Assembly: GCA_013140715.1 (NCBI GenBank)
Contig: JABFSG010000016.1
Location: 1-64,000 of the forward strand
Direction of reading: 5' to 3'
DNA: 64,000 bases
Source: Nitrospiraceae bacterium
Lineage (GTDB): Bacteria > Nitrospirota > Nitrospiria > Nitrospirales > Nitrospiraceae
Position numbers and translations under genes: made by a program. The notes beneath the pieces were generated by a model, which saw only the letters and a list, made by a program, of their open reading frames with translations, did not search any database and had not been told where the DNA came from. Of this stretch, positions 11,433 through 63,116 are shown piece by piece; position 1 is the stretch's first letter; each line of letters begins with the position of its first letter.

Positions 11433-11521
11433 TGGTACAGGGTGAGGGATAGGGAGTGCGGGAGCAGAAGAAACATAAATTCTCGGAACTAGTGTTTCTA
11501 CCCCGTTACCCCTTACCAGTT
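11433..11521. repeat. Degenerate-word hairpin element
   Basis: The left arm (11433-11458, iterated GGGTGAGGGATAGGGAG-like words) and the right arm (11498-11521, ACCCCGTTACCCCTTACC-like words) are roughly complementary. The right arm contains the stop codon and last five codons of the radical-SAM gene. One of a family of such elements in this window. Confidence 0.55.
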
Positions 11522-12909
11522 ACGTCAAAATTGAAGACTGGCGCGTCGTTCCCGAATCGTTTCTTGCGGAGCTCTTCCATCAATTCAATGGTAATCACGG
11601 GAATATTATTCTCGCGTGCGTGTTTTTCAACGCCCTTTTTCACCATGGCGCGCAAGAAATAGGGAATCCGGTTGAGTCTGGTTTCTGAGTCCTCATTCCA
11701 CGCTACCTGGCTTTCTTCCGGTGTATTAAATGCGACTTTGATCTTTTCTCCCCCCTTCGGGGTATAGAGACACCATTGATCTTCATCCAGCCAATCGCCG
11801 TGATCGACGTAGGGACGTGCACGGCAACCTCCGCAGATGTCTGTGTACTCGCAATCACCGCATTTACCTTTCAGTTGCGGATAGCGGAAGGAATTGAAGA
11901 CGTCGGACTTTTCCCACAGATCGACAAAACTTGCCTCTCGGATGTTCCCGGCAGACAACGGCATGTAGGGACAAGGGGTCAGCTCGCCATTAGGAGTCAC
12001 GCGCGCGTAATTCGTGCCAGCCAGACATCCGCCGCCCATATAGCCCGTCGCTTTAGTAATAGGGGAGTTTGGATCTTTTTCGTACGCGAGCCGTTTGAAA
12101 TGCGGCGCACAGCGAGCCCGGACGAGCATACCCTTGTAATTATCCTGACAGTTGACCAGGTAGCCAAGAACCTCCTCGTACTGGGCCGGGGTGATATCGG
12201 TTAATTCCTCGCCGCGACCGGTGCAGACCATGAAGAAAACATTGAGCACCTTGGCGCCAAGCTGATGCGCCCAATCGATCACTTCTGGCAATTCCTGATA
12301 ATTCATCGGTTGCGCGCTGAAATGTACTTGAAAGGCCAATCCATTCCGCTTGCAGGCCTCGATACCGGCGAGTGCCGCTTCCCATGCACCAGGCACACCT
12401 CGGAAGCGGTTATGCTTGACGGGATCCAGTGAGTCGATGCTGATACCCATGCCCATCACGCCGATTTCGACAAGTTCCTTTGCCATCCGGTCATCGATCA
12501 ACATACCGTTGGTCCCAAACACCACCATGAAGCCGAGCTTCACAGCGTAACGCGCGATGTCGAGGATGTCAGGACGGACGAGCGGTTCGCCGCCCGTGAT
12601 CACCAGAAGACAACCCCTATTGACCTCGGCAATCTGATCGATGAGTCTGTAGCATTCTTCGGTCGAGAGTTCGTCGTCCCCGCCAGCCGACTTCGTCGTC
12701 GCATCGAGATAACAATGGTCGCACTTGAGATTGCAGCGCTTTGTGAGGTTGAGTGCAATGAGATAGGGCTTGAAGTCATCGACCGTTCGGCCATCATAGG
12801 GCCCTTCGCCTTGAGGGGTAGGCGTGAGAAATTGCGTGACCTGCTGTTGAAAAGCCCCGATCACTCCGCTGAGTAAGGGACCGTTGAAGATTGGTAGCGA
12901 TTTACCCAT
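11506..12909 (-). CDS. Radical SAM/SPASM protein with C-terminal PCP_red module
   Basis: The 467-residue protein has the radical-SAM cluster motif CNLKCDHC (about residues 58-65) and the GGEP motif (near 108). A SPASM-type region follows with cysteines at GGGCLAG, TPCPYMP and CGDCEYTDICGGCRAR, so a second Fe-S cluster is expected. The overall pattern is that of NirJ/AhbC/AhbD-type haem-modifying enzymes. The last 60 residues (NRIPYFLRAMVKKGVEKHAR and onward) match the PCP_red helical module first described in light-independent protochlorophyllide reductase. Two genes downstream of the stress protein that carries three such modules, it may work with it. A haem d1-like or other tetrapyrrole substrate is inference. 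Confidence 0.85.
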   Translation of the reverse strand: MGKSLPIFNGPLLSGVIGAFQQQVTQFLTPTPQGEGPYDGRTVDDFKPYLIALNLTKRCNLKCDHCYLDATTKSAGGDDELSTEECYRLIDQIAEVNRGCLLVITGGEPLVRPDILDIARYAVKLGFMVVFGTNGMLIDDRMAKELVEIGVMGMGISIDSLDPVKHNRFRGVPGAWEAALAGIEACKRNGLAFQVHFSAQPMNYQELPEVIDWAHQLGAKVLNVFFMVCTGRGEELTDITPAQYEEVLGYLVNCQDNYKGMLVRARCAPHFKRLAYEKDPNSPITKATGYMGGGCLAGTNYARVTPNGELTPCPYMPLSAGNIREASFVDLWEKSDVFNSFRYPQLKGKCGDCEYTDICGGCRARPYVDHGDWLDEDQWCLYTPKGGEKIKVAFNTPEESQVAWNEDSETRLNRIPYFLRAMVKKGVEKHARENNIPVITIELMEELRKKRFGNDAPVFNFDVTGKG

Positions 12910-12918
12910 GGTCTAGAA

Positions 12919-13018
12919 GAAATGTGAAACTCTAAATTAAGGACGTAGAATGGGTGGTTCTGGAAAGTCGGCTGTCCGGTCAATTTCACATTTCACATTC
13001 ATCATTCAAACTTTCAAC
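12919..13018. repeat. Degenerate-word hairpin element
   Basis: GAAATGTGAAA (12919-12929) faces ATTTCACATTTCACATTCAT and further CATT/CAAACTTTCAA words at 12983-13018. The arms are complementary over 11 bases. The right arm reaches into the stop codon of the universal-stress/PCP_red gene (13014-13016). Confidence 0.6.
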
Positions 13019-16523: not shown

Positions 16524-16728
16524 CGAATGTCTGAATTACCGTGATGTCATTCGCATTAGGGACAATACAAAGAAAGTGACACGAGTAACCTAGGGAGCAC
16601 CCCACCCCTTCCCCATTATTAATGTGCCAACAGAGGCGAAAAGTGGTGTAGATTAGCCGCGGACGTGCTGCTAAGTCAATGCGAAGGGTATTGGAATCTC
16701 AGGCGAATCCCTCATTTTCTGGGAGAGT

Positions 16729-27076: not shown

Positions 27077-27114
27077 TTGGTGAATTGTGAGTGGGACAGG
27101 CAGGAAAGGAAATT

Positions 27115-27202
27115 CTGAGTGCTGAATTCTGAGTTTCAAAAACCTCAAACTCTTTTCTATCACGGCTTTCTTATCTTCCTCTAACTCAGCCCCAGCACTC
27201 AG
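27115..27202 (+). repeat. Hairpin element after HerA-like gene
   Basis: CTGAGTGCTGAATTCTGAGTT (27115-27135, one base longer than the usual arm) pairs with AACTCAG plus CAGCACTCAG (27183-27202) over 17 bases with a small internal mismatch. It starts 39 bases past the stop of the HerA-like gene and could act as a terminator or RNA-stabilising structure. Both arms consist of iterated CTGA/CTCAG words. Confidence 0.6.
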
Positions 27203-27324
27203 AACTTCTTCGCGAGTCTCGCATGAATGCGAGGGGCCGCATCGGCTGATAGGGCTATTCGTCTCTATAGCACTGTCGCTGCCGAATTGAGTACGGTGCC
27301 TATGCTCTAACAAAAAGGTAGATT

Positions 27325-34996: not shown

Positions 34997-35042
34997 GGCT
35001 GAAGGCTGTTAGGAGCAGAAACCACCTTCAGCCTGAATACCT
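34997..35042. repeat. REP-like dispersed repeat, copy B (inverted)
   Basis: GGCTGAAGG (34997-35005) pairs perfectly with CCTTCAGCC (35025-35033). The reverse complement of the unit reads almost the same as copy A at 32490-32536. It lies between the YqhA and lipoprotein genes and may serve as terminator or as a dispersed repeat. Confidence 0.75.
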
Positions 35043-47065: not shown

Positions 47066-47176
47066 AAATGGTGAATGGATAATGGTCGATGAATCGAGAG
47101 CGTTTCCATCGTCTTTCACCATTACCCATTGACCATTATCCATTTACCATTCACCTTCGACCATTCTCATTTACCC
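47066..47176. repeat. Degenerate-word hairpin element (strong example)
   Basis: The left arm 47066-47094 (AATGGTGAATGGATAATGG words) and the right arm 47115-47176 (CCATTACCCATTGACC, ATTATCCATTTACC, ATTCACC words) are nearly complementary: GGTGAATGG, ATAATGG and GGTC occur in both orders. The right arm includes the stop codon of the GNAT gene (47167-47169). It separates the VOC and GNAT genes. Confidence 0.75.
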
Positions 47177-48554: not shown

Positions 48555-49733
48555 ATGGCTTTGCCTCATTGGAAAATCGGCCGTGCACTCGGCATCCCGA
48601 TTTACGTGCATGCCTCTTGGTTTGTCGTATTTCTGTTTGTGACGTCATCTCTAGCGACAGGTTATTTGCCGGACATGCTGCCAGGCCTGTCAACTCCACG
48701 CTATTGGGGGATGGGTGGCATAGCGGCCCTGTTGCTGTTCCTCTCTGTGTTGCTCCATGAATTGGGCCATTCTTATGTAGCGCTGCGCTACCAGATCCCG
48801 ATCAGACAGATCACTCTCTTCATCTTCGGCGGGATGGCCCACATGGGGAAGGAGCCACCCAGTCCACGAGCCGAATTTTTGATCGCAATGGCTGGACCGC
48901 TCGTAAGTTTGATCCTTGGGGCTGCTTGTCTCGGTGGAGCCATGGCAATGGATCATCTGTTCGCACGACCTGGACTTCAAGGACTCGCCGTCCTTGGGAG
49001 CTTGCTCGGCGTGGTGAATGTGCAGCTCGGCCTGTTTAACCTGATCCCGGGGTTTCCACTAGATGGAGGACGTGTCTTACGGGCAGGACTATGGGCCTGG
49101 AACAAGGATTTTAATCGTGCAACCAGTCAGGCATCGCTCGCGGGATTGGGATTCGGCATAGCTCTTGGGTTGATCGGTACAGGCCTGATGGTGGGGAACT
49201 GGTCCGGCGCCTTGGGACAGTCTCTCACAACGAACGGAGGCTGGCTCATCTTTATCGGCATCTTCCTCTTTTCGGCAGCCCTGGCAAGCAGACGGCAGGC
49301 AACCCGACAGACCGCTCTGACTTCTCTCACCGTTCGCCAGGTCATGGTTCACCGAGTCGTGACGCTGTTACCGGATATGACTGTTCAAGATGCGGTCGAT
49401 CGCTACTTTGTCACACAGGGATTTGGTGGATTCCCCGTATGCGAAGAGGGACAGCTTCTCGGTGTGGTCACAGTGCGAGACGTACATGCACTTCCCATCG
49501 GGCTCTGGCCGTTACGCCACGTTCGCGAGATCATGCGCCAAGCATCGCCGGCCCTCTGCATCCCTCCGGACTGGTCCGTCACGCAGGCAATGGATCGGAT
49601 GGCCCAGAGTGGGTTGGACCGTCTTGTGGTGATCGAGAACGAAGAAATCGTGGGGCTTGTCACTCAATCGGCCATCGCTCACTTTCTCCAGCTTCGCGGA
49701 TCGGAATCGTTAAGCGTGAGGCGGCAGAGGTAA
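48555..49733 (+). CDS. Site-2 protease-like M50 metalloprotease with CBS domains
   Basis: The 392-residue protein has about six membrane helices with the zinc-binding motif LLHELGHSYVAL (near 70) and the third ligand in NLIPGFPLDGGRVLRAGLWA (near 162), as in Rip3-type site-2 proteases that cleave membrane-bound anti-sigma factors or other proteins. Two CBS domains follow (about 262-380), VRQVMVHRVVTLLPDMTVQD and later VREIMRQASPALCIPPDW, which usually bind adenine nucleotides and may set activity. The last four codons and stop lie within a hairpin element. Confidence 0.9.
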   Translation: MALPHWKIGRALGIPIYVHASWFVVFLFVTSSLATGYLPDMLPGLSTPRYWGMGGIAALLLFLSVLLHELGHSYVALRYQIPIRQITLFIFGGMAHMGKEPPSPRAEFLIAMAGPLVSLILGAACLGGAMAMDHLFARPGLQGLAVLGSLLGVVNVQLGLFNLIPGFPLDGGRVLRAGLWAWNKDFNRATSQASLAGLGFGIALGLIGTGLMVGNWSGALGQSLTTNGGWLIFIGIFLFSAALASRRQATRQTALTSLTVRQVMVHRVVTLLPDMTVQDAVDRYFVTQGFGGFPVCEEGQLLGVVTVRDVHALPIGLWPLRHVREIMRQASPALCIPPDWSVTQAMDRMAQSGLDRLVVIENEEIVGLVTQSAIAHFLQLRGSESLSVRRQR

Positions 49734-49780
49734 GGGGCCGTTCTCTCCATGCCCCTAACAGCTCATCCCTCACGCCTTAC
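49712..49780. repeat. Degenerate-word hairpin element
   Basis: AAGCGTGAGGCGGCAGAGG and TAAGGGG words (49712-49738) face CCCCTAACAGCTCATCCC and TCACGCCTTAC (49750-49780). The arms are imperfect complements. The left arm carries the stop of the M50 gene. Confidence 0.65.
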
Positions 49781-49782
49781 AA

Positions 49783-51237: not shown

Positions 51238-51330
51238 TGGTTCATTTTGTTGGTCTGGTTTGTTTGGTTTATCTGGTTAGTTTCATTCAACCAAATGCAC
51301 AAAACAGACCTGATGAACCAGATAAACCGG
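51238..51330. repeat. Degenerate-word hairpin element
   Basis: Left arm 51238-51279 (TGGTTCATTTTGTTGGTCTG and GTTTGGTTTATCTGG words) faces right arm 51288-51330 (CAACCAAATGCACAAAACAG and GAACCAGATAAACCGG words). GGTTTATCTGGTT and AACCAGATAAACC are exact complements. It lies six bases from the BrkB stop. Confidence 0.7.
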
Positions 51331-51335
51331 TTTTC

Positions 51336-52306: not shown

Positions 52307-53794
52307 TTACTTGAAGGTCAGGACGGACTGGAGCGCGAAACTGACAAGCGGGTTGGGAAAAAGGCCGAATAGAATCACACCGGCGACGGCACAGGCCAAC
52401 ACGAAGGATAGGGCCGGGGAAGTCACGAGTCCAGGCGGCGCGACGGAAGAGGGATTCGGATCGCGCATATACATCACCATCACCACCCGCATGTAGTAGT
52501 AGGCCGATACGGCGGCGAAAATCAGCGCAACGGCAGCGAGCCAGGCCAAGCCTGCTTCGACTGCGGCCATGAACACATAAAACTTTGCGATAAAGCCTGC
52601 AGTCGGCGGAATGCCGGCGAGCGAAGCCATGAAGACCAGCATCAAAAAGGCCGCGAGCGGCTGACGTTTTGCGAGGCCTGCAAAATCCTCGATTTCTTCT
52701 CCCTCCATCCCGCCTTTTCTGAGCATGCCGATGACGGCGAATGCACCGAGCGTCATGAACGAATAGATGGCAAGATATATCATGACGCTCGCGAGGCCCG
52801 GTGTGCCTCCTGATGCGCCATCCCCGCGGCCTGCAGCCACAAAACCGACCAATACGTAGCCTGCATGCACAATGCTGGAGTAGGCCAGCATCCGTTTGAT
52901 GTTGGTCTGCACGATGGCAACGACATTACCCAATACCAGAGTCAGGATGGAAATGATCAGGAACAGAATCGACCAGTCCGCCTTGAGCCCCCCAAGCCCT
53001 TCGACGAAGACACGGATAAACGCGGCAAAACTGGCGGCCTTTGACGCCACCGCCATGAAGGCCGTAATCGAGGTGGGGGCGCCTTGATAGACGTCGGGCG
53101 TCCACATATGAAACGGCACCGCGGCGAGCTTAAAACTAAAGCCGACTGCAATCAGAATCGTCGCGATCAGCACAAGGGGATCATCCGTCCCGCGCGTCCC
53201 AATAGCGCCTGCGATCGATGCCAGCTTGGTGCTGCCGGCCAGACCGTACAGCAACGAGATGCCGTACAACAGAATTCCCGAGGAAAAGGCGCCGAGGACG
53301 AAATATTTGGCTGAGGCCTCCAGCGAGCGCGGCTTGGAGCGATTGAGGCCTGTCATCACATAGAGCGAAATGGACATGAGCTCGGTGCCGAGGTAAATCG
53401 TGAGCAAGTCGACTGCGGAGACCATGACCAGCATGCCGGAAAGGGCGAGGAGGATGAATCCATAGTATTCGCCGAGGTGTATACGCTCGGCCTTCAGATA
53501 GGGCAGCGACAGTACGATGGTTACGCCGGTCACGCTATAGAGGAGGATTTTCCAGAATCTGGCATAGGCATCGATCGCCACCAGATCGCTGAAAGCAGAC
53601 ACTCGAACATTTTCCACGCTGATCTGCCAGCCGGTAAGCCCAAGACAGAGGGCGAGGGCGCCAACGCTCAGCCAAGCCAGGAGGTCTCGTCGCGAGGCGG
53701 GAGTGATCGGGTCCAACGCAATGACGACACAAGCCGTGACGACGACAATGAGTTCTGGAAGCAAGGCCAAGAGGTCGGTACCGTAGAGACTCAT
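52307..53794 (-). CDS. nuoN: NADH-quinone oxidoreductase subunit N
   Basis: The 495-residue protein has 14 membrane helices and the antiporter-like proton channel pattern: LSGMLVMVSAVDLLTIYLGT, ELMSISLYVMTGLNRSKPRS and AAVPFHMWTPDVYQGAPTSI. NuoN is one of three antiporter-like subunits that pump protons in the membrane arm of complex I. It is the last nuo gene here and overlaps nuoM by four bases. Confidence 0.97.
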   Translation of the reverse strand: MSLYGTDLLALLPELIVVVTACVVIALDPITPASRRDLLAWLSVGALALCLGLTGWQISVENVRVSAFSDLVAIDAYARFWKILLYSVTGVTIVLSLPYLKAERIHLGEYYGFILLALSGMLVMVSAVDLLTIYLGTELMSISLYVMTGLNRSKPRSLEASAKYFVLGAFSSGILLYGISLLYGLAGSTKLASIAGAIGTRGTDDPLVLIATILIAVGFSFKLAAVPFHMWTPDVYQGAPTSITAFMAVASKAASFAAFIRVFVEGLGGLKADWSILFLIISILTLVLGNVVAIVQTNIKRMLAYSSIVHAGYVLVGFVAAGRGDGASGGTPGLASVMIYLAIYSFMTLGAFAVIGMLRKGGMEGEEIEDFAGLAKRQPLAAFLMLVFMASLAGIPPTAGFIAKFYVFMAAVEAGLAWLAAVALIFAAVSAYYYMRVVMVMYMRDPNPSSVAPPGLVTSPALSFVLACAVAGVILFGLFPNPLVSFALQSVLTFK

Positions 53795-55350
53795 CGCGAT
53801 CCGCCTTGGATCTCCAGCTGTTCGTCACTGTCCACCAGCAACGGCGCTGTCCCACCGGCAGAGGGGTGGGCAGTCGGTGCCACCTTCTCGCGGGACATGG
53901 AGGCAAGGGTGTTGGTCACGCTCTCGTGCATCCGGCTGACGATCGGATTCGGATAGAACCCGATCCAAAATATCAGCAGGACCAGCGGGACCAAGGTGAC
54001 GAATTCCCGTTGGTCAAGGTCCCTGAGAGTCGGAAGATGGTGCGGCGACGGAACCCCGAAGACCACTCGCTGGACCATCCAGAGGAGATAGGTAGCGGCG
54101 AGAATAATGCCCAACGATGCCACGGCAGTTGCGATCTTGCTCCAGGAAAACGTGCCAACGAGGACTAGGAATTCTCCGACAAAACTATTGGTGCCGGGAA
54201 GGCCGAGCGAAGACAGGGCAAAAATCACCAAGAAAGTTGCATACTGCGGCATCGGTGCTGCCAGTCCGACATTGTCGGCGATCAGCCGGCTGTGGGTGCG
54301 CTCATAGATGATCCCGACACAGAGGAACAGCCCGCCGGTCGTAATCCCATGGTTGACCATCTGAAGGACAGCGCCTTCGATGCCCTGTTGGTTTAAAACA
54401 AACAGGCCCAGGGTCACAAACCCCATGTGGCTCACACTCGAATAGGCAATCAGTTTCTTGAGATCGACTTGGGCCAGCGCCATATAGGCGCCGTAGATGA
54501 TCGCGATGATGGAGAGGACGACCATGATGGGTGTAAAAAAACGGCTGGCATCCGGCAACATCGGCAAGCTGAATCGCAGAAATCCATAGGTGCCCATTTT
54601 CAACAGAATGCTGGCGAGAATGACGCTCCCGGCGGTTGGGGCTTCGACGTGGGCGTCCGGGAGCCAGGTGTGAAAGGGAAACATGGGAACCTTCACGGCG
54701 AAGGCTGCGAAAAACGCGAGAAAGAGCCACATTTGCAGCTGAGCGGGGTAGGTGCCTTGGCTCAATGCGAGGATGTCGAACGTATGCCCGCCATAATAGT
54801 ACATGACGAAGATGGCCACGAGCAGGAGCATGCTCCCTGCAAGGGTGTACAGAAAGAACTTGATGGCAGCATAGAGCCTGTTAGCCCCTCCCCAGACTCC
54901 GATGAGGAGGTACATCGGAATCAGCATGGCCTCCCAAAAGACATAGAACAGGACGAAATCCAAGGCGGCAAAGACCCCAATCATGGCCGTCTCCATGACG
55001 AGCACCATGGCCATGAAGCCCCGAACTCTCGTGGTGATCGCATTCCAGGATGCCAAGACGCAGAGCGGCATGATCCCGACGGTCATCAACACCAAGGGAA
55101 GACTGATTCCATCCAGACCCAGACTGTAGTAAATGGGAGGAGCGTTGATCCAGGCGACGTGTTCGGTGAACTGCATCTGACTGGTCTGGGGATCGAAGAG
55201 CCACCAGAGCGGGAGAGCGACACACAGATCGGCCAGGGTCGCGGCCAACGCAATCCATCGAGCGGTTGATTCCGGCACGAACGACATCGCAATGGCTCCC
55301 GCGAGGGGAAGCACAAGGAGCAGCGAGAGCCATGGGAAGGAATTGGTCAT
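53791..55350 (-). CDS. nuoM: NADH-quinone oxidoreductase subunit M
   Basis: The 519-residue protein has about 14 membrane helices with the antiporter motif FYVFWEAMLIPMYLLIGVWG (conserved Glu), VKVPMFPFHTWLPDAHVEAP (conserved Lys and His) and KKLIAYSSVSHMGFVTLGLF. NuoM is an antiporter-like proton-pumping subunit. The frame is open upstream to 55611, but that part is not family-like; the ATG at 55350 gives the standard N-terminus. The final four bases overlap nuoN. Confidence 0.97.
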   Translation of the reverse strand: MTNSFPWLSLLLVLPLAGAIAMSFVPESTARWIALAATLADLCVALPLWWLFDPQTSQMQFTEHVAWINAPPIYYSLGLDGISLPLVLMTVGIMPLCVLASWNAITTRVRGFMAMVLVMETAMIGVFAALDFVLFYVFWEAMLIPMYLLIGVWGGANRLYAAIKFFLYTLAGSMLLLVAIFVMYYYGGHTFDILALSQGTYPAQLQMWLFLAFFAAFAVKVPMFPFHTWLPDAHVEAPTAGSVILASILLKMGTYGFLRFSLPMLPDASRFFTPIMVVLSIIAIIYGAYMALAQVDLKKLIAYSSVSHMGFVTLGLFVLNQQGIEGAVLQMVNHGITTGGLFLCVGIIYERTHSRLIADNVGLAAPMPQYATFLVIFALSSLGLPGTNSFVGEFLVLVGTFSWSKIATAVASLGIILAATYLLWMVQRVVFGVPSPHHLPTLRDLDQREFVTLVPLVLLIFWIGFYPNPIVSRMHESVTNTLASMSREKVAPTAHPSAGGTAPLLVDSDEQLEIQGGSR

Positions 55351-55439
55351 GGATCGTTGGTCACGAGTCACGTGTCGTCGTCGAGAGAACAAGCATTCGT
55401 TGTTCCCGCCATCCGACGACCGTCGCCCGGTAACACTCC

Positions 55440-57341
55440 TTAAAGAAAGAAGTACATCGTAAAAAGAACCACCGCCCCAAGCGCCATCCCGAGCGCATAA
55501 TGTTGCGCCTGCCCGCTTTGCGTGAGCCTCAGGAGCCATCCTCCCCAGGCAATCGCGCGGGCAACACCGTTCACTGCGCCATCGATCACGTTCACATCCA
55601 CACGCTTCCACAGTTCGCTCGCGCCGAAAAAGGTCGGTCGGACGATCGTTCGATCATAGGCCTCGTCGACATACCATTTGTTCAGCGACGCCCGATACAA
55701 CGATTGCCACTGGCTGGCAAGTCGATCAGGCAGGGCCGGGTTGACTACATAGAAGTAATAGGCACCGGCAATTCCGAGCAACCCCATACATGTGGCCGCC
55801 ACCATGATGCCGATGGCAGCTCCTCCCTCGTGAGTCGCCTCGGCTGCGCCTGTCTCGAACAGAGGGTCAAGAAACTCCGGAATGCCGAGATAGCCTGTCA
55901 GGATGCTGAGCATAGCCAAGACGATGAGCGGCAAGGTCATGGTGTTCGAAGGTTCGTGGACGTGGTCTGCATGGTGTGGATCGACATGCGAGGGCCCCCA
56001 AAACGTGACAAAGACCAGCCGGAAGCTGTAGAAGGCCGTCATCAGCGCCGTCACCAGGCCGAGCAGGGTCAGGCACTGACCGAGGGGACCGGCTGACCAA
56101 GCCGAGACGAGCAGATGGTCCTTGCTGAAGAATCCTGACGTCAGGGGGAATCCTGCAAGGGCAAGAGAGCCGACCACGAACGTCCAATAGGTAATTGGCA
56201 ATTTATGTTTCAGCCCGCCCATGCGCCGCATATCCTGTTCGTGATGCAGGGCGATGATGACGGACCCGCAACCGAGAAACAGGAGGGCTTTGAAGGCGCC
56301 GTGCGTCAGGAGATGGTACATACCGGCGGCATAGGCGCCGAGACCGCAGGCCATGACCATGTAGCCGAGCTGGCTGATAGTCGAGTAGGCAACGACGCGC
56401 TTGATATCGGTCTGGGTCAAGGCAATGGTTGCCCCCACAATCATCGTGATACCGCCCGTGATCGCCACGAGCGTCATGGCGGTGGGGGACAAGTTATAAA
56501 GAGGAGCCAATCGTGCGACCATGAACACGCCGGCAGTGACCATCGTAGCGGCATGGATCAACGCCGAAATAGGGGTCGGACCTTCCATGGCATCCGGCAG
56601 CCAAACGTGGAGGGGTACCTGCGCCGATTTGCCGACTGCGCCGGTGAATAATAAAACGCAGATGAGTGTGAGCAGGGAGACGTCCCAGGTTCCTCCAAAT
56701 GGGCCGAGGACATTGATGACCTCGCCTGCGGACTCATGCGCACGAACGAATATTTCGGAATAGTCGAGCGACCCAAAGCTGTACCAGACCAACAGGAGAC
56801 CGAGCATGAAGCCGAAGTCGCCGATACGGTTGACGATGAAGGCCTTCATGGCGGCGGAGCAGGCAGCCGGACGATCGTACCAGTGACCGATGAGCAAATA
56901 GGAACAGAGACCGACCGCTTCCCAGAATACGAAGAGCTGAAGCAGGTTGTCTGCCATCACCAACATCAGCATCGAGAAGGTAAAGAGGGCGATATAGCTG
57001 AAAAACCGGGCATAGCCGGGATCTCTGTGCATGTACCCGATGGTATAGATGTGGACGAGCGAACTCACGGTCGTAACGAGTAACAACATCACGGCGGTGA
57101 GCCGGTCGATGGAGAAGCCGATATGGATATCGAGCAGACCGGAGGTGAGCCAGCTGTAGAGTGGGAAACTCGTCTGGTGGCCACCGGCTACATCGAAAAA
57201 GACCATGAGCGCGAGCAGCCATGACACGACAACCGCCGGGACGGCAACGAGATGGGCCTTGTCCTTGATCCAATGTCCGAAGATCCCGAGAATCAGGAAA
57301 GCGGCGAAGGGAAGCAATGGGATCAGTGTGTACGTCATCAT
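55440..57341 (-). CDS. nuoL: NADH-quinone oxidoreductase subunit L
   Basis: The 633-residue protein is the largest antiporter-like subunit, with the motif LFVFWEAVGLCSYLLIGHWY (conserved Glu), SAQVPLHVWLPDAMEGPTPI (conserved Lys and His) and DIKRVVAYSTISQLGYMVMA. The C-terminal part, with the long lateral helix of complex I, is present. An 89-base spacer separates it from nuoM. Confidence 0.97.
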   Translation of the reverse strand: MMTYTLIPLLPFAAFLILGIFGHWIKDKAHLVAVPAVVVSWLLALMVFFDVAGGHQTSFPLYSWLTSGLLDIHIGFSIDRLTAVMLLLVTTVSSLVHIYTIGYMHRDPGYARFFSYIALFTFSMLMLVMADNLLQLFVFWEAVGLCSYLLIGHWYDRPAACSAAMKAFIVNRIGDFGFMLGLLLVWYSFGSLDYSEIFVRAHESAGEVINVLGPFGGTWDVSLLTLICVLLFTGAVGKSAQVPLHVWLPDAMEGPTPISALIHAATMVTAGVFMVARLAPLYNLSPTAMTLVAITGGITMIVGATIALTQTDIKRVVAYSTISQLGYMVMACGLGAYAAGMYHLLTHGAFKALLFLGCGSVIIALHHEQDMRRMGGLKHKLPITYWTFVVGSLALAGFPLTSGFFSKDHLLVSAWSAGPLGQCLTLLGLVTALMTAFYSFRLVFVTFWGPSHVDPHHADHVHEPSNTMTLPLIVLAMLSILTGYLGIPEFLDPLFETGAAEATHEGGAAIGIMVAATCMGLLGIAGAYYFYVVNPALPDRLASQWQSLYRASLNKWYVDEAYDRTIVRPTFFGASELWKRVDVNVIDGAVNGVARAIAWGGWLLRLTQSGQAQHYALGMALGAVVLFTMYFFL

Positions 57342-57356
57342 GAGCTAATAGCTGCC

Positions 57357-57474
57357 GGCGTATGGTCTATAGCCAAGAGTTGCTGGCGGACGAGAGACAT
57401 GCTGTAGCTTGGTGTCGACTCATTCCCACGCGCTCTGGCTTTCTCTCCCGGTCCGAGCCATACGCTATGGGCCA
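57357..57474. repeat. Degenerate-word hairpin between nuoK and nuoL
   Basis: GGCGTATGGTCTATAGCC (57357-57374) and GAGCCATACGCTATGGGCC (57455-57473) contain complementary GCGTATGG and CCATACGC and related words. It occupies most of the 151-base space between the two genes. Confidence 0.5.
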
Positions 57475-57492
57475 TCACCTCTGTGATCCGTT

Positions 57493-57798
57493 CTACCATT
57501 TCAGCAACTGAAATTCGTCGATGTTGATCGTGGATTTGGTTCGATACAGGGCAATGATGATGGCCAACCCGACTGCGACTTCCGCCGCAGCGACGGTCAG
57601 GGTAAAAAATACGAACACCTGTCCTGCTACATTGTGGAAGTACTGAGAAAAGGCGACGAAGTTGATATTTGTCGCGTTCAACATCAATTCGACCGACAGC
57701 AGAATAATGATGATATTTCGGCGCAGGAGCACCCCGACGACTCCCGTCAGGAACATGATGCCGCTCAGTACAAGATAATAGGACAACGGGACCGTCAT
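57493..57798 (-). CDS. nuoK: NADH-quinone oxidoreductase subunit K
   Basis: The 101-residue protein has three membrane helices. The conserved glutamates lie in [20 protein letters not shown] and [20 protein letters not shown], as in NuoK, which helps form the proton path at the junction of the membrane arm. Length and motifs are standard. Confidence 0.97.
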
Positions 57799-57821
57799 GA
57801 AACCCTCGTGAAGCGCGCCTG

Positions 57822-57907
57822 GTGAAACGTGAAACGTGAAACGTGAAACGCCGGAAGAAGGTAACGACTCGGGGCCTTTAACGAATTACGATTCACGCTT
57901 CACGCTC
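57822..57907. repeat. Degenerate-word hairpin element
   Basis: The left arm (57822-57850) is four tandem copies of GTGAAAC; the right arm (57881-57907) has ATTCACGCTTCACGC words. The right arm contains the nuoJ stop and last four codons. It sits between nuoK and nuoJ. Confidence 0.7.
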
Positions 57908-58408
57908 TCCAACGTCTTTTTTGGCCAGGACGATCGCCCCGATCATCGCCACGAGTAGAATCAAAGACGCCACCTCGAAGGGAAACAAATAGGTGGTATA
58001 GAGCACGTCGCCTATCGCCGCCGTATTTCCTGCTCCGCCGATTGCCGTTTCTGCGTCGGTTGCAACGGCAGGAGTCGTCGAACCCTTCATCGCCGTCAAG
58101 ATAATAGCTTCGATCACCAGAGTCGCTCCCACCGCCGCGGCCATGGGCCATTGTCGATGGTAGCGGACATCCTGTTTCAGATTCAGCAACATGACGACGA
58201 ACAGATAGAGGACCAAGATGGCGCCGGCGTAGACGATAATTTGAACGGCTGCGAGGAATTCAGCATGAAGCGTGACATAGAGCCCCGCCACGTGGAAAAA
58301 CATGACCAGAAGCGCCAGCGTACTATAGATAGGATTGCGCAACGCGACCACGAGCACCGATGTTGCGGCGATCACACAAGCAAAATAGAAAAAGAATGCC
58401 TGTTCCAT
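57893..58408 (-). CDS. nuoJ: NADH-quinone oxidoreductase subunit J
   Basis: The 171-residue protein has five membrane helices with the NuoJ pattern RNPIYSTLALLVMFFHVAGL and QIIVYAGAILVLYLFVVMLL, which holds the pi-bulge helix of complex I. The ATG at 58408 is used; the 27 upstream residues in the open frame are not family-like. Its final residues EREA are encoded by the hairpin words. Confidence 0.96.
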   Translation of the reverse strand: MEQAFFFYFACVIAATSVLVVALRNPIYSTLALLVMFFHVAGLYVTLHAEFLAAVQIIVYAGAILVLYLFVVMLLNLKQDVRYHRQWPMAAAVGATLVIEAIILTAMKGSTTPAVATDAETAIGGAGNTAAIGDVLYTTYLFPFEVASLILLVAMIGAIVLAKKDVGEREA

Positions 58409-58560
58409 TACGCGTGTTCCTCTAGACTGCTGCCATCTTGCCCGCACGAGCGGCGAACCGAGCGAGACAGGCGACGCACCAGATGCCACACCCTGTTCCT
58501 GCCTGTCGCGCAGCTCACGCCCATCTACGCCAGTCTTGCGCAGTTATCCGGCGTGGAGAT

Positions 58561-59100
58561 TCAGTCAGGTTTTTGCGGCAGGTGCTTGAATGCGACGTTG
58601 AAGAACGCCACATTCGGATGCTGGAGCTCCAACTGCTTCTCGCGAACCGGGAACGACCGGTCGCCGATGGCGAGCAATTGTTCCTTATTGAGGTGCAGTT
58701 GCCGCTTGTCGTATACCGACCACTCGTATTCGCGCGTCATGCCGAGGGCATCGACCGGACAGGCATCGACGCACAGGCCGCAAAACAAGCAGCGGGTCAT
58801 GTCCATGTAATACTCTTTCGAATAGCGCTTCGTCGGCTCGCCCGGCACTTCCGCGCTGACCACGCGAATCACACGAGAGGGACAGGCGGCTTCGCACAGG
58901 TCGCAGCCGACACATTTTTCCGTCCCGTCGTCGTACCGCAACAAGGACAGCATCCCGCGATAGTTATCCGGCAACGCCCGCTTTTCATGCGGGTATTGCA
59001 TGGTGATCGGCTTGTAATGCAGGAGATGCGACATCGTCGCTCTCATCCCGACGACAAGCTCGTAGAACGTGATGGTTTTGATCCATGCCTTGAACGTCAT
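58561..59100 (-). CDS. nuoI: NADH-quinone oxidoreductase subunit I
   Basis: The 179-residue protein binds two [4Fe-4S] clusters (N6a and N6b): CVGCDLCEAACPSRVIRV and CLFCGLCVDACPVDALGM. They pass electrons from the NADH arm toward the quinone site. The ATG at 59100 gives the usual N-terminus; the long open frame upstream to 59427 is hairpin and nuoH-side sequence. Confidence 0.97.
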   Translation of the reverse strand: MTFKAWIKTITFYELVVGMRATMSHLLHYKPITMQYPHEKRALPDNYRGMLSLLRYDDGTEKCVGCDLCEAACPSRVIRVVSAEVPGEPTKRYSKEYYMDMTRCLFCGLCVDACPVDALGMTREYEWSVYDKRQLHLNKEQLLAIGDRSFPVREKQLELQHPNVAFFNVAFKHLPQKPD

Positions 59101-59102
59101 GT

Positions 59103-59243
59103 CTGTCTGGTTCGTCTCGTTGGTTTGTTCGGTTTCTTTGGTTTGTTTAGTCGTTCTGCATTGTCTAGATGGAGTTAATACCTGCGCACCCTCCTCAATT
59201 TCGATCCTGCCAACCAAAGAAACGAAAGAAGCCGAACAAACCC
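59103..59243. repeat. Degenerate-word hairpin between nuoI and nuoH
   Basis: Left arm 59103-59150 (GGTTTGTTCGGTTTCTTTGG words) faces right arm 59210-59243 (CCAACCAAAGAAACGAAAGA and GCCGAACAAACCC). About 25 of 30 bases pair. It fills the space between the nuoH stop and nuoI start. Confidence 0.7.
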
Positions 59244-59252
59244 AACACCGCT

Positions 59253-60347
59253 TCAGCCCCTCGGAAATAAATACACGGTGACCGCCGTGATGATGATGTT
59301 GGCCAAGGCAATCGGCAATAGAACTTTCCAGCCAAACCGCATCAATTGATCGTATCGCAATCGAGGCAACGTGGCGCGCAACCAGATGAACATGAAGAGG
59401 AAAAAATAGACTTTGGCGGCAAACCAAACAATGTGCTCTATCCAGGCCAGCTGTTCGAGGCCGATATACTCGAAGATTGTGCCAGGGTAGGGCGCGTTCC
59501 AGCCACCCAAGAACAACGACGCGGCGACGCAGGACACGAGGACCATGCTGGCGTATTCCGCGCTGACGAAAAAGGCGAACTTCATACCGCTGTATTCCGT
59601 GAAGAACCCCGCCACCAATTCGCTTTCTGCTTCAGGAAGATCGAAGGGGATACGATTGGTCTCGGCCACGCCGGCAATGACAAAGACGACAAAGGCGAAC
59701 ACTTGGGTATGGATGGGAAAGAATCCATCGGGGCGCGCCCCCCAAACGAACCAATGCCAAAAACCGCCTGCCTGGGCTTCCGTAATCTCCACCAGGCTCA
59801 AAGACCCCGACAATAGCAGCACGCCGACGATAGCCAGCCCGACGTTCAACTCGTAGCTGATGACCTGGGCCGCAGAGCGTAAGCCTCCCAGCAGCGAATA
59901 TTTGCTGTTGGACGACCAACCTCCCAGAATAATGCCGTAGGCACCGATCGAAGCAATCGCCAGGATGTACAAGATCCCGATGTTGATATCGGCGACGACG
60001 AACGGTTTAATCGTCAGCCCACCGATGTCCAGAGTCATGTCCGGGCCGAAGGGAATGACGGCGAATCCGATCATGGAGACGACCATCGTCAGCATCGGCG
60101 CCAGAGCGAACATGGCCTTGTTCGCGCCGGCTGGCACAATGTCCTCCTTGAAGAACAATTTGACTCCGTCGGCGAGCGGTTGCAGGATGCCATAGGGGCC
60201 GACTTCCATCGGTCCCATGCGGTCCTGCATCCAGCCGAGCACCTTTCGCTCGGCCAGGGTCATGATCGCGACCGTCAACATCACGATGCTCATCTCTGCC
60301 AATATCTGCACAAAGGAAATTGCCAGTCGCAAGCTTAGCTCAGTCAC
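59253..60347 (-). CDS. nuoH: NADH-quinone oxidoreductase subunit H
   Basis: The 364-residue protein has eight membrane helices and the quinone-site signatures ERKVLGWMQDRMGPMEVGPY, ADGVKLFFKEDI and PFDLPEAESELVAGFFTEYS. NuoH links the quinone-binding chamber to the membrane arm. I place the start at GTG 60347, with GGGAG eight bases before; an in-frame TTG lies at 60368. Confidence 0.96.
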   Translation of the reverse strand: MTELSLRLAISFVQILAEMSIVMLTVAIMTLAERKVLGWMQDRMGPMEVGPYGILQPLADGVKLFFKEDIVPAGANKAMFALAPMLTMVVSMIGFAVIPFGPDMTLDIGGLTIKPFVVADINIGILYILAIASIGAYGIILGGWSSNSKYSLLGGLRSAAQVISYELNVGLAIVGVLLLSGSLSLVEITEAQAGGFWHWFVWGARPDGFFPIHTQVFAFVVFVIAGVAETNRIPFDLPEAESELVAGFFTEYSGMKFAFFVSAEYASMVLVSCVAASLFLGGWNAPYPGTIFEYIGLEQLAWIEHIVWFAAKVYFFLFMFIWLRATLPRLRYDQLMRFGWKVLLPIALANIIITAVTVYLFPRG

Positions 60348-60396
60348 TGCCGCACTCCCTGATGACAAGTGAAAAATACCATCGGTTTCCGTCCGT

Positions 60397-63063
60397 TCAC
60401 GTTGCTTTCAACACGGACACAATCGCCGTCCGAAAGGACGGGACTTTCGTATCCGGATCGATGACACAGTCGAAAAGTCGCAAGGCCTCCTGCGCGAAGT
60501 GATCGGGGAGCCAGGCCAACCCCTCAGGCACCCGCTCGAGCACTTTCACCGTAGTGATGAATTGACCACGGTTGTTCGAAAGACGAACTCGATCTCCCGA
60601 TCCGAGAGAAAATCGAGCGGCATCTACTGGATTCATCTGCAACAACCCGCTCGGTTCGATCTGCAACAGTCCCTTTGAGTGGGTCGACAGTTTCCCTGAA
60701 TGAAACAGGCTCTGGACCAGTCCAAGCTGGACCGTGCCTTCCTGCCGCACGGCTCGCGGAGGCAGTGTATACCGAATCGCCACGTCATGGCGATATCCCT
60801 CGGTTACGTATCGGTCGATTGCGGAAGGATCTGCAGTGGGAGCGATCGGCGAAGGCCCGAGGGAGCCATAGCCTGGAATCACCGACCGAATCTCTTTGAG
60901 GATCTCTTTGGCTTCGCCGTATTCCAACGGCGCGCCGAGAAAGACCGAGAATGCCGACAGGATTTCCCAGTCGGGGCGGCTGTCGCCCACCGGATCGATT
61001 GCGGGCCTGACAGCCTGGACATGGCCCTCGGTATTGGTGAAGGTCCCGGCTTTTTCCATGGCCGAAGCTGCGGGAAGCACGACATGGGCAAGCGCGGCTG
61101 TTTCCGTGAGAAACAGCTCCTGGCATACAAGAAAATCGAGTTTGCTCAGCGCTTCTTTGGTTCTGATCTGGGAGGGAAGGCTCCCAACAGGATTCTCTCC
61201 CACGACGAAGAGACTCTTAATGATCCCGGCGCTCGCTCGGTCGATCATCTCGATGAGAGTGCTTCCCGGTACGAGAGGAATCTCCTCTTTCCAGGCGCGA
61301 GCCATCCGGTCGCGCGAGTCCTGATCCGTCAGGTCGAGCGCTCCCGGCAGCAGCTCCGCAACCGCCCCCATTTCAACCGCTCCCTGATCGTTATTCTCTT
61401 CCGCCAAGGGAGCGAAGCCGCAACCGGGCGAGGTCAACTTTCCAGACAAGAGAAGCAGGTCGAGGAGATTGAGGCAAATGCCGTAACCACCCTGGCTGCG
61501 CAACAGGATCTGTCCGGCAAGGACCACGACACGGCGCCCCCGAACCAGAGAAGCGGCCATCTGGGAGAACAAGTCGCGCGAGATCCCCGTGTTCACGGCA
61601 AGATCTTCCCAGGCTATTTGCTGAACCGCGTGAGAGAGGACCGAGACATAGTCCGGCGCCCGTTGCCGGATTCCAGAATCGACATGGTCTCCTTCAATCA
61701 CAGCCTTCAAGAGGCCGAGAACGGCTGCGCCGAATTGGGACGGGGCGACACAGACATGTTGCCGGGATAGATTGGTAATGTTGCTGATCGTGCCGACCGC
61801 TGGCTGAAGCGCCTCGATCGTCAACAACGTCGCCTCGTATTTTTTGACGGCTTCTTTTACTTTAAGTCCCGTAATCGGATTGGCTTCAGTGATATTCGTA
61901 CCGACCAGGAGCAGCACGTCCGCTTGCACGATGTCCTCGAACGTCACGGTCCAGCGGTGCGTGCCTTGTACCCGTCGCATCGCCTGTACTCCGTTGACGT
62001 GGCCGTACCGCGCGCTGCTGTCCAGGTTATTCGTCCCGATCGTGAGGCGCATAAACTTCTGGAAGAGATAGAGTTCTTCGTTGGTGCAGCGGCCGGAGAT
62101 CAGCCCACCGAAGGCCTGTGGGCCATGAGCCTGCTTGATCCGGTTGGTCTGTTCGGCCACAAACAGGAGCGCCTCCTCCCACGTGGCCTCGACCAGCGTG
62201 CCGTTCCGTCTGATCATCGGATAGGTCACTCGGTCGGGATGACTCGTCGCATGAAATCCAAAATAGCCTCGCGCACAGAGGTCTCCGTTGTTCCGGCCGC
62301 CGCTATGGGCGCTGTTCACCTCGATCAGCTCCTGATCCTTGGTTTGCACCGTGATCTGGCAACCGTCGCCGCAAAACGTGCAGATCGTATCGGCGCGTTT
62401 GAGCATCCAGGGACGGTACTCGTACATCGAGAGCCGGCTGGTGATGGCGCCGACCGGACAGATCTGCACGCAGCCGCCGCAGAACTCACAATCCAAGGGA
62501 TGGTTGCCGAAGGACTTGATCTCGGTCATCGTACCTCGCCCGATCGGGGCGAGAGCCTTCACGTCCATGACCTCGTCGCAATAGCGGACGCAACGCAAAC
62601 ATTGGACGCAACGGTTCATCTGCGTTTCGATCAAGGGGCTGAAATATTCTTTCTGAAAAATACGCTTGGTCTCGGCAAATCGGCTGGTCGCGGTGTATTG
62701 ATGGGAAAAATCTTGAAGGTCGCACCTACCGCCTTGGTCGCAGACCGGGCAATCCAACGGATGATTGGCCAGAATGAATTCGAGCACCGACTTGTGGGCG
62801 TCATTCACGACCGTCGTGGCCGTCCGAACGGCCATGCCTTCGGTTGCCACGGTGCTGCAGGAGGTCTGGAGTTTTCTCACTCGTTCGATCTCGACCAGAC
62901 ACATGCGGCAGTTTGCATCCGGCTTGAGTTTCGGATGGTAGCAGAAATGCGGGATCATCACGCCGGCCTGACGAGCGGCTTCGATCACCAAGGTGCCTTT
63001 CGGCACCGAAATGGAAATGCCGTCGATGGTCAAGCGGACAGTTTCTGTGGTCACATTAGCCAT
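60397..63063 (-). CDS. nuoG: NADH-quinone oxidoreductase subunit G
   Basis: The 888-residue protein starts with a [2Fe-2S] domain (CYHPKLKPDANCRMC), then HPLDCPVCDQGGRCDLQ, CVQCLRCVRYC and CEFCGGCVQICP, which bind further clusters. CTFCGDGC at the start of the molybdopterin-like domain could bind an N7-type cluster. The rest is the formate-dehydrogenase-like fold typical of NuoG. A cluster-rich N-terminus and full C-terminal half are both intact. It ends 50 bases before the nuoH GTG. Confidence 0.97.
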   Translation of the reverse strand: MANVTTETVRLTIDGISISVPKGTLVIEAARQAGVMIPHFCYHPKLKPDANCRMCLVEIERVRKLQTSCSTVATEGMAVRTATTVVNDAHKSVLEFILANHPLDCPVCDQGGRCDLQDFSHQYTATSRFAETKRIFQKEYFSPLIETQMNRCVQCLRCVRYCDEVMDVKALAPIGRGTMTEIKSFGNHPLDCEFCGGCVQICPVGAITSRLSMYEYRPWMLKRADTICTFCGDGCQITVQTKDQELIEVNSAHSGGRNNGDLCARGYFGFHATSHPDRVTYPMIRRNGTLVEATWEEALLFVAEQTNRIKQAHGPQAFGGLISGRCTNEELYLFQKFMRLTIGTNNLDSSARYGHVNGVQAMRRVQGTHRWTVTFEDIVQADVLLLVGTNITEANPITGLKVKEAVKKYEATLLTIEALQPAVGTISNITNLSRQHVCVAPSQFGAAVLGLLKAVIEGDHVDSGIRQRAPDYVSVLSHAVQQIAWEDLAVNTGISRDLFSQMAASLVRGRRVVVLAGQILLRSQGGYGICLNLLDLLLLSGKLTSPGCGFAPLAEENNDQGAVEMGAVAELLPGALDLTDQDSRDRMARAWKEEIPLVPGSTLIEMIDRASAGIIKSLFVVGENPVGSLPSQIRTKEALSKLDFLVCQELFLTETAALAHVVLPAASAMEKAGTFTNTEGHVQAVRPAIDPVGDSRPDWEILSAFSVFLGAPLEYGEAKEILKEIRSVIPGYGSLGPSPIAPTADPSAIDRYVTEGYRHDVAIRYTLPPRAVRQEGTVQLGLVQSLFHSGKLSTHSKGLLQIEPSGLLQMNPVDAARFSLGSGDRVRLSNNRGQFITTVKVLERVPEGLAWLPDHFAQEALRLFDCVIDPDTKVPSFRTAIVSVLKAT

Positions 63064-63065
63064 AG

Positions 63066-63116
63066 GTTCGTCTTCAAGTCAGAACGTCCGAAAGTCTTCA
63101 CGTCGAAACGTTCGAC
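63066..63116. repeat. Degenerate-word repeat between nuoF and nuoG
   Basis: GTCTTCAAGTCAGAACGTCC and GAAAGTCTTCACGTCGAAACG words fill the 58-base space. Complementary GTCTTC/GAAAGAC-like arms are imperfect. Same style as the other spacer elements. Confidence 0.45.

What the first reader, a model, noticed from the sequence alone, without database searches (positions are those of the whole stretch)
11433..63116. Family of spacer hairpins built from degenerate short words, often covering the stop codon upstream
At least ten spacers (11433, 12919, 27115, 47066, 49712, 51238, 57357, 57822, 59103, 63066) hold two arms made of iterated but non-identical 6-9 bp words, such as four copies of GTGAAAC or runs of ATGG/CCAT variants. 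The word set differs between sites, so they share a building principle but not a sequence. In five cases the arm includes the stop codon and last codons of the gene before it: rSAM, stress/PCP_red, GNAT, M50, nuoJ. This suggests a slippage-born terminator or 3'-end stabiliser.
Basis: partly seen in the sequence, partly recalled or inferred. Interest (0 to 1): 0.72.

Follow-up and report, generated by a model that had tools for sequence, protein, structure and literature searches.

The report
Swappable repeat-word hairpins between genes
Many gaps between genes in this Nitrospira genome hold hairpins built from repeated 7- or 9-letter DNA words, and comparing related species shows that whole hairpins, words and all, are swapped, gained or lost at the same gap while the genes on either side stay in place.

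Summary
Of the ten named sites, six have both a hairpin and a word array beyond shuffling, one a hairpin only, one words only, two (11433, 57357) neither. Genome-wide it is strong: 49 of 435 spacers in a 766-kb own-genome sample and 40 of 217 in a second species pass both tests, against 0 of 75 in E. coli. Word length is mostly 7 or 9 bp. The words are not private to sites: they recur at many places, in species-dependent numbers.

"Terminator" is not supported: hairpins sit between nuo genes and rarely carry a T-tract. "Slippage-born" fits the arrays. Within alleles pairing is kept, but two-sided changes are rare. What changes between close species is the whole spacer: 12 replacements and 4 gains/losses in 69 comparisons; in the pairs examined, gene sequence is sister-like again within about 30-60 nt. 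One 77-bp hairpin appears to have moved between species about 15% diverged. I read them as exchangeable intercistronic hairpin alleles; 7-bp word spacers also occur in other phyla. Each ingredient is known; their combination was not listed by ten paper searches. Function is unproven.

The parts
11422..11520 (-). Spacer after the rSAM gene (11506-12909); C/G-run words, weak
   Evidence: Arms p=0.28, words p=0.15; RNA z=-2.08. Not established.
12921..12999 (-). Word hairpin, arms 12921-12938 and 12982-12999 (GTGAAA-type words)
   Evidence: arms p=0.002, words lag 7 p<0.002. RNA z only -1.56.
27109..27208 (+). Word hairpin, arms 27109-27124 and 27193-27208 (TGAATTC/TGAGTGC words)
   Evidence: arms p<0.002, words lag 14 p=0.008. 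RNA z only -0.98.
47067..47168 (-). Word hairpin between GNAT and glyoxalase genes, arms 47067-47091 and 47127-47151 (ATGGTNA words), a further arm reaching the GNAT stop codon
   Evidence: both tests p<0.002; lag 14; RNA z=-3.71.
49712..49782 (+). Convergent-spacer hairpin over the M50 stop codon, without iterated words
   Evidence: Arms p=0.002, words p=0.83; RNA z=-3.28.
51239..51331 (-). Word hairpin of GGTTTRTYT 9-bp words downstream of the BrkB gene
   Evidence: arms p<0.002, words lag 18 p=0.002; RNA z=-5.13.
57342..57492 (-). nuoK-nuoL spacer, weak (probably decayed) copy of the 'ATAGC/TATGGC' allele
   Evidence: Not significant in this genome; homologous alleles with clear hairpins in relatives.
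57807..57904 (-). nuoJ-nuoK word hairpin, (GTGAAAC)4 arm and arm covering the nuoJ stop codon
   Evidence: both p<0.002, lag 7; allele of the same class in five related species.
59122..59242 (-). nuoH-nuoI word hairpin of GGTTTNTTY 9-bp words
   Evidence: both p<0.002, lag 9; orthologous allele in relatives.
63064..63121 (-). nuoF-nuoG spacer with GAACGTC/GAAAGTC word array, no significant hairpin
   Evidence: Words lag 24 p=0.004, arms p=0.52; spacer replaced relative to G003.
52307..63967 (-). nuo genes nuoF (63122-63967) to nuoN (52307-53794), whose spacers were compared across species
   Evidence: Pfam matches.

Best explanation
Each site holds an intercistronic hairpin allele: two arms made of 7-bp or 9-bp word arrays around a locus-specific loop. 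The arrays are most likely made by slippage in a 7/9-bp register, and the matching arm by copying the array backwards in a fold-back event, so that a hairpin is born whole (inferred). Afterwards it is inherited as one allele of its spacer, collects mostly one-sided point changes, and is replaced, lost or gained as a block (shown), partly by short-tract recombination between Nitrospira species that reaches only some tens of bases into the adjoining genes (inferred from identity profiles). Pairing is mildly protected, so the hairpins probably do something at the gene boundary, most likely as punctuation of a joint mRNA (stability or uncoupling of neighbouring genes) or as a DNA structure; which of these is not shown.
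For: Excess: 49 of 435 and 40 of 217 spacers pass both tests, E. coli 0 of 75 (there 16 pass the inverted-repeat test and 0 the word test). Period: own genome lag 7 in 18 spacers (0.2 expected), lag 9 in 34 (0.2 expected), lag 10 none; 7- or 9-family in 64 of 435 spacers against 4 of 435 matched coding stretches, G002 40 of 217 against 5 of 217. Arms belong together: native halves score 19.6 on average, left half of one species with right half of a dissimilar one 11.8. Whole-block change: in 11 close species pairs that I chose from the tree, 69 orthologous nuo spacers: 33 same allele, 20 short in both, 12 replaced, 4 gained/lost; 10 of the 11 pairs appear, at four-fold synonymous divergence 0.13-0.22. 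Sharp borders: G003 and G000 nuoK-nuoL spacers are 39% identical, the adjoining 30-nt windows 90% and 96%; G030 and G001 nuoH-nuoI replaced, adjoining 60-nt windows 98% and 98%. Apparent transfer: nuoJ-nuoK spacer 94% identical between G006 and G009, nuoJ's last 30 nt 100% (83% and 72% between G006 and G018 or G004), other nuo genes 85%; G009's closest relatives G004, G010, G017 have a different 58-59-bp allele. Near-full-length matches of three alleles lie at the nuo spacer wherever the contig lets me tell (exception: one 73% match in G016), while 25-36-nt pieces of their word arrays match many other places. Pairing kept: 64-75% of cells pair against 17-37% when slid; arms change less than loops (0.145 v 0.204 per site, 44 non-independent comparisons, p=0.001).
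Against: Fold-back birth is not observed. Arms slower than loops could also reflect array homogenisation. Pairs changed on both sides are few (6 against 197 one-sided): decay rather than active maintenance. Borders are not always sharp: next to other replaced spacers the adjoining 30-60 nt of the genes differ too (nuoJ's last 60 nt 74-82% between hairpin-bearing and overlapping species; G009/G010 nuoJ-nuoK 77% and 59%; G019/G016 nuoF-nuoG 80% and 77%). The 100% identity of nuoK's first 30 nt between G006 and G009 is not diagnostic, since G006 and G018, with different alleles, also show 100%; strong conservation instead of transfer is not excluded. No strand asymmetry of mismatches in the genome-wide set (85 v 87), but a G-T excess in two of five nuo allele sets (39:19 and 35:19, non-independent; the others 11:15, 10:7, 40:48), so DNA v RNA is open. 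The reference structure comes from the best-folding member, which favours it over the slid control. In some species the nuoK-nuoL arms carry two different words and are not complementary. At least one word hairpin looks inserted like a transposon (G031 nuoG-nuoH, direct repeat GTTTCACT on both sides, read by eye).
Confidence: 0.5

Rival explanations
1. They are transcription terminators or attenuators at gene 3' ends.
For: Scarcer in divergent spacers (4 of 74 v 85 of 578); predicted RNA folds beyond z=-3 at four of the ten sites.
Against: T-tract after the 3' arm in 2 of 40 and 0 of 30; position between co-directional nuo genes in this genome and relatives; no strand asymmetry of mismatches. 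Rho-dependent ends cannot be excluded by sequence.
Confidence: 0.08
2. They are remnants of mobile miniature elements (MITE-like), each word family being the terminal inverted repeats of one element family.
For: One case in G031: a hairpin with ends GTAACYACTCAGGTGTTYAGGCTGAAGG sits in the nuoG-nuoH spacer, which is 48-50 bp in the other 23 of 24 species listed, between copies of GTTTCACT; similar ends at L072:16400 (own genome) and L191:14694 (G002), the latter with iterated GGCTGAAGG words inside.
Against: For three other alleles searched whole, near-full-length matches lie at the orthologous nuo spacer where position can be told, bar one 73% match in G016; of 8 inserts in the automatic test, 7 show no flanking duplication, and the test also failed to report the G031 one.
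Confidence: 0.17
3. They are REP/BIME-type elements spread by a RAYT (Y1_Tnp) transposase.
For: Extragenic palindromes, scarce in divergent spacers; Y1_Tnp matches in 19 of 32 genomes of the genus (18 over the family cut-off).
Against: Y1_Tnp not found in 13 of 32, including G018, G025, G026, G027 and G031, which carry such spacers (several of the 13 are incomplete genomes); words of several unrelated families instead of one core sequence.
Confidence: 0.04
4. Purely mutational: 7/9-bp slippage and fold-back copying in sequence that tolerates it, with no function at all.
For: Spacers of other phyla also show the 7-bp period (17 of 207 at lag 7, 0.25 expected); in five of six nuo spacers some species have only 2-25 bp or an overlap instead; two-sided changes rare.
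Against: Arms change less than loops and slightly less than four-fold sites (p=0.001 and 0.04, non-independent comparisons); alleles of one class persist in several species.
Confidence: 0.21

Closest known systems
Over-represented intergenic heptamer repeats of bacteria (GGGAATC in Xanthomonas, GGGGA(C/T)T in Nostoc; PMC4692102, passages and the whole Discussion section read)
   Same: 7-bp units, intergenic, under-represented between divergent genes, same gene pairs in related species with extensive length and sequence variation, polymerase slippage cited as origin; inverted copies mentioned as possible stem-loops.
   Different: There G-rich units of one type per genome, studied for G-quadruplexes; here several word families per genome, 9-bp as well as 7-bp, paired arms, whole alleles replaced.
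[quoted passage not shown] Costa 2002 known only as cited there)
   Same: Degenerate heptanucleotide repeats that pair into a hairpin, with two classes of repeat motif.
   Different: A single site inside an intron; here many intercistronic sites.
TAACTGA direct repeats of Beggiatoaceae (PMC4679880, passages incl. parts of the abstract read)
   Same: Intergenic heptamer arrays, some overlapping the end of the upstream gene.
   Different: One word, direct repeats (one inverted case), mostly upstream of start codons.
Switched intergenic regions / horizontal regulatory transfer (PMC5890482, passages read)
   Same: Spacers between the same genes replaced by unrelated sequence, distribution incongruent with gene trees.
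   Different: Described there for regions upstream of genes within S. aureus and E. coli; here word hairpins between co-directional genes of different species.
REP/BIME elements (features recalled, not from a call)
   Same: Extragenic palindromes.
   Different: REPs share a sequence family per genome, linked to a RAYT; several unrelated word families here and no Y1_Tnp match in 13 of 32 genomes.

Membership tests
Intrinsic (rho-independent) terminators | Stem-loop directly followed by a T-tract | tested here: not met
   >=6 T of 10 in 2 of 40 and 0 of 30 tandem hairpins.
Intrinsic (rho-independent) terminators | Transcripts end there | not testable with these tools
   No RNA data; position between nuo genes speaks against.
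REP/BIME with RAYT | Shared conserved palindrome core within a genome (definition recalled) | tested here: not met
   Several unrelated word families per genome.
REP/BIME with RAYT | Cognate Y1_Tnp gene in the genome (definition recalled) | tested here: inconclusive
   Match in 19 of 32 genomes; cognateness not tested.
Heptameric intergenic SSRs | 7-bp tandem units in spacers above chance | tested here: met
   Lag 7 in 18 of 435 spacers v 0.2 expected (own); 17 of 207 v 0.25 in other phyla. The 9-bp families fall outside the definition.
Switched intergenic regions | Divergent alleles between the same two genes | tested here: met
   12 replaced and 4 gained/lost of 69 comparisons in 11 close species pairs.
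Switched intergenic regions | Allele distribution discordant with the tree | tested here: inconclusive
   Alleles look scattered on a tree of concatenated Nuo proteins for six spacers and one apparent transfer; no formal reconciliation was run.
MITEs | Terminal inverted repeats with target-site duplication | tested here: inconclusive
   One case read by eye (G031 nuoG-nuoH); 7 of 8 inserts without duplication in the automatic test, which also did not report the G031 one.
Structured RNA (selection on pairing in RNA) | G-U tolerated, A-C not, in the sense strand | tested here: inconclusive
   85 v 87 in 70 tandem hairpins against tRNA control 13 v 0 (14 tRNAs); terminator-like control too small, 3 v 5; nuo allele sets pooled 135 v 108, non-independent.
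Rfam families | Match to a curated family | tested here: not met
   Only tRNA at 299-370 in the window at gathering scores.

The most novel reading that the evidence does not exclude
Each Nitrospira species uses its own 'dialect' of hairpin words, set genome-wide by trans-acting factors that recognise a 7- or 9-bp word; when a factor is lost, its hairpins vanish everywhere, including between the nuo genes. Supporting hint: carriers of the CATCACY nuoJ-nuoK allele (9 genomes, defined) have a median of 3.0 such word pairs per Mb elsewhere, non-carriers (20) 0.0 (p=7e-5), and in all 6 independent sister contrasts the carrier is higher; one carrier, G029, has none elsewhere. Other words agree less: GTGAARC 3 of 3 contrasts, TCAGCAC 2 of 3, GGTTTRTYT 1 of 5 (3 lower, 1 tie).
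Probability: 0.1. Interest if true: 0.85.

Novelty: new variant of a known kind. Interest (0 to 1): 0.55.

Why it matters
Intergenic heptamer repeats have been reported for years without a settled explanation (PMC4692102). Here such words are paired into hairpins, found in a sizeable share of spacers, mostly 7 or 9 bp long, and replaced as whole alleles between close species while the genes on either side stay. That turns 'why 7 bp' and 'how do spacers evolve' into questions that comparative genomics and simple reporter tests in one genus could answer.

Tried and rejected
Terminators: rejected on T-tracts and position. In-situ concerted evolution of the two arms (my own first idea): rejected, because within alignable alleles two-sided changes are 6 against 197 one-sided and arms are slower than loops. 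REP/RAYT: disfavoured. Long recombination tracts carrying the spacer: not seen at 60- or 30-nt resolution in the pairs examined. A universal dialect rule: only the CATCACY word behaves so clearly; GGTTTRTYT does not after phylogenetic pairing.

Weaknesses of the tests. Genes were called with my own hexamer caller, so spacer borders are approximate. The IR statistic can count short-loop palindromes twice; arms were measured by splitting the spacer, and the geometry, chirality and mismatch counts printed are superseded. The output was cut in the middle (parts of nuoI-nuoJ and nuoJ-nuoK); nuoJ-nuoK was seen. Word classes are regular expressions of mine, and the tree is of Nuo proteins only. One search scored CATCACY carriers by such an expression and missed four genomes that one search shows to carry the homologous allele; one search repeats it with the carriers. 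In one search the L-M rows with length -238 (G010) are gene-border artefacts, since one search finds the allele there. In 'replaced' includes G015/G031 nuoG-nuoH, which is an insertion. Matches with 25-36 nt are individually weak, and that pattern hits lie in spacers was not checked. Position not verified for near-full matches in G012 and G013 and a 76% match in G022 (on another contig than its nuoK); of the two 71-73% matches, the one in G018 is its own nuoK-nuoL spacer, the one in G016 lies elsewhere. In one search six same-genus loci (L089-L092, L094, L098) were left out; two of the 28 nuo loci and five of 54 other-phyla loci gave no usable spacer; its own-genome rows used per-locus training and are superseded. 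The own sample includes contigs in which one search had found GTGAAAC (C17, C24, C31, C36, C61), a mild bias; the first part alone (plus window, 204 spacers, 32 with both) is not lower. The word pair TGACCATTGACCATTG was searched in 118 genomes of the phylum and found in 4 (G003 and three of other families). One search crashed and was rerun.

Literature: ten searches; judged from titles and abstract starts, none listed a description of word hairpins in Nitrospira; two found no paper. Subscription papers are not in the library.
Full report
What the window is. The window is bases 1-64000 of contig C61 of a 3.58-Mb draft genome. NuoK of the window is 96% identical to NuoK of a Nitrospira sp. metagenome genome and 84% to that of Candidatus Nitrospira defluvii, so I take the genome to be a Nitrospira. 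The minus-strand block 52307-63967 holds nuoF to nuoN.

Anatomy. Arms have a median length of 30 (own) and 26 nt (G002), loops 20 and 18.5 nt. The arm on the 5' side has more G than C in 47 of 49 own hairpins and 34 of 40 in G002, in tandem and convergent spacers alike; because a hairpin reads the same on both strands this polarity is not about transcription direction, and I have no explanation for it. Divergent spacers hold few (4 of 74 against 85 of 578). The upstream stop or last codons lie in the 5' arm in 10 of 40 and 2 of 30 tandem cases.

Orthologous spacers in other species of the genus. The nuo region was fetched from 28 genomes and its spacers laid out by gene pair (part of the listing was cut, for nuoJ-nuoK). 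NuoM and nuoN overlap in all 24 species listed, and nuoG-nuoH is 48-50 bp in 23 of 24; the other six spacers hold word hairpins in some species and, in five of the six, only 2-25 bp or an overlap in others. The same spacer carries different words in different species. For nuoK-nuoL these include ATAGC/TATGGC words, CGTCGTTCGT words, TGGTCAA words, and a form with TGGTCAA words on one side and TCAGCAC words on the other, whose arms are not complementary. On a tree of concatenated Nuo proteins these alleles look scattered.

Do arms belong together. Pairing the left half of a spacer with its own right half gives a mean score of 19.6; with the right half of a species whose spacer is dissimilar 11.8; shuffled spacers 12-14. 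So the two arms match within a genome although the words differ between genomes.

How do they change. Within alignable alleles of close species, arms differ at 0.145 per site, loops at 0.204, four-fold synonymous sites at 0.179 (44 comparisons, not independent; arms v loops p=0.001, arms v synonymous p=0.04), and pairs changed on both sides are 6 against 197 changed on one side. Within five allele sets across the genus 64-75% of cells pair, 17-37% when the partner is slid, with 23 double-changed cells among 1478. The arms are therefore mildly protected but not rewritten in step. The word change comes instead from whole-spacer events. In 11 close species pairs chosen from the tree, 69 comparable spacers: 33 same allele, 20 short in both, 12 replaced (identity below 0.55), 4 gained or lost. 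Around some of these events the genes look like those of the sister species right up to the spacer: G003 against G000 at nuoK-nuoL, 39% identity in the spacer, 90% and 96% in the 30 nt on either side; G030 against G001 at nuoH-nuoI, 98% and 98% in 60 nt. Around others the adjoining 30-60 nt differ as well (nuoJ-nuoK: 74-82% in nuoJ's last 60 nt between carriers and overlapping species; G009/G010 77% and 59%; G019/G016 nuoF-nuoG 80% and 77%). The G003 nuoK-nuoL spacer is of the CGTCGTTCGT class also found in G028, G009, G013 and G004. The clearest case for transfer is nuoJ-nuoK of G006 and G009: 94% over 77 bp and 100% in the 30 nt on each side, against 85% for other nuo genes; the three closest relatives of G009 carry another allele. 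NuoK's first 30 nt are also 100% between G006 and G018, so only the upstream side and the spacer itself are telling.

What is shared between sites. Three alleles were searched as whole sequences in 32 genomes of the genus. Matches over most of the length lie at the nuo spacer where the contig lets me tell; not verified for G012 and G013 and a 76% match in G022; a 73% match in G016 lies elsewhere. Pieces of 25-36 nt from the arrays match many other places. Word vocabularies differ between species: TCAGCACTCAGCAC has 58 hits in G008 and 46 in G031 but none in G000, G001, G012, G013, G014, G019 and G029; GTGAARCGTGAARC has hits in all 32 (2 to 139) against one control hit in total. The nuo allele tends to follow the vocabulary of its genome, clearly for CATCACY words and less or not for others.

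Beyond Nitrospira. The 80 named loci include 54 from other phyla; of 207 spacers in 49 of them, 17 show self-similarity at lag 7, 13 at lag 14 and 8 at lag 21, against about 0.25, 0.2 and 0 expected, and 19 of 49 loci have one. Examples with both arms are in Chloroflexota (L135, L136, L147, L150, L165) and Methylomirabilota (L113). In seven loci labelled as other Nitrospirota or Nitrospirales none of 35 spacers passed both tests or showed any lag at the score used. The 9-bp GGTTTRTYT pair is in 23 of 32 genomes of this genus and in 11 of 198 of a phylum-wide sample.

RNA or DNA. If pairing were selected in the mRNA, G-T mismatches (G-U in RNA) should exceed A-C mismatches in the sense strand. 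They do not: 85 against 87 in 70 tandem hairpins; 14 tRNAs of the sampled sequence give 13 against 0. The terminator-like control was too small (3 v 5). In the nuo allele sets the pooled count is 135 against 108, from related sequences. I take RNA-level selection as unproven, not as refuted.

Mechanism. Shown: word period, genome-wide excess, matched arms, whole-spacer replacement and gain/loss with nearby gene sequence little changed. Inferred: slippage as the source of the arrays, in line with the proposal for heptamers cited in PMC4692102; fold-back copying as the source of the second arm; recombination as the carrier, including the G006/G009 case. One hairpin class behaves like a small transposon (G031 nuoG-nuoH with GTTTCACT on both sides and ends similar to L072 and L191). 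Function remains open between mRNA punctuation, DNA structure and none.

Against what is known. Heptamer repeats, heptad hairpins at one intron site, and switching of intergenic regions are each in print (PMC4692102, PMC3488679, PMC4679880, PMC5890482; passages, and for the first the Discussion, read). Ten searches of an open-access library listed no description of their combination. I therefore call it a new variant of a known kind.

Noticed in passing
own-genome loci, e.g. L073:5138-5249, L087:19721-19922, L176; also nuoN-BrkB spacers of G030, G028, G009, G010 and, in part, G004: A dispersed element with inverted ends GCAGGATGCT(G/C)AAAAA ... TTTTT(G/C)AGCATCCTGC, 16 end motifs in 766 kb of the own genome; not seen in the nuoN-BrkB spacer of the window and of many relatives, so it looks like a mobile miniature element.
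   Followed up: partly
L062 (G031) around 2575-2720; L072:16400; L191:14694: Element with ends GTAACYACTCAGGTGTTYAGGCTGAAGG and its rough inverse; flanked by GTTTCACT on both sides in G031, and with iterated GGCTGAAGG words inside in G002: a possible bridge between miniature elements and word hairpins.
   Followed up: partly
window 38063-38098: Perfect 17-nt inverted repeat with a 2-nt gap (ATTCCGTCACCTGGCGG) in a divergent spacer, without significant word repetition; perhaps an operator.
   Followed up: no
hairpins of own genome and G002: Strand-symmetric polarity: the 5' arm has more G than C in 47 of 49 and 34 of 40 hairpins, in convergent spacers too. Unexplained.
   Followed up: partly
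window 8532-10908: About 2.4 kb in which my gene caller placed only a 36-aa ORF (9494-9604); either short or decayed genes, or a caller failure.
   Followed up: no
window 34997-35033: Short GGCTGAAGG ... CCTTCAGCC hairpin in a spacer not among the ten listed.
   Followed up: no
Chloroflexota loci L147, L150: 8-bp words (GTAATTNN) as well as 7-bp ones form intergenic hairpins near nuoK in Chloroflexota loci.
   Followed up: no
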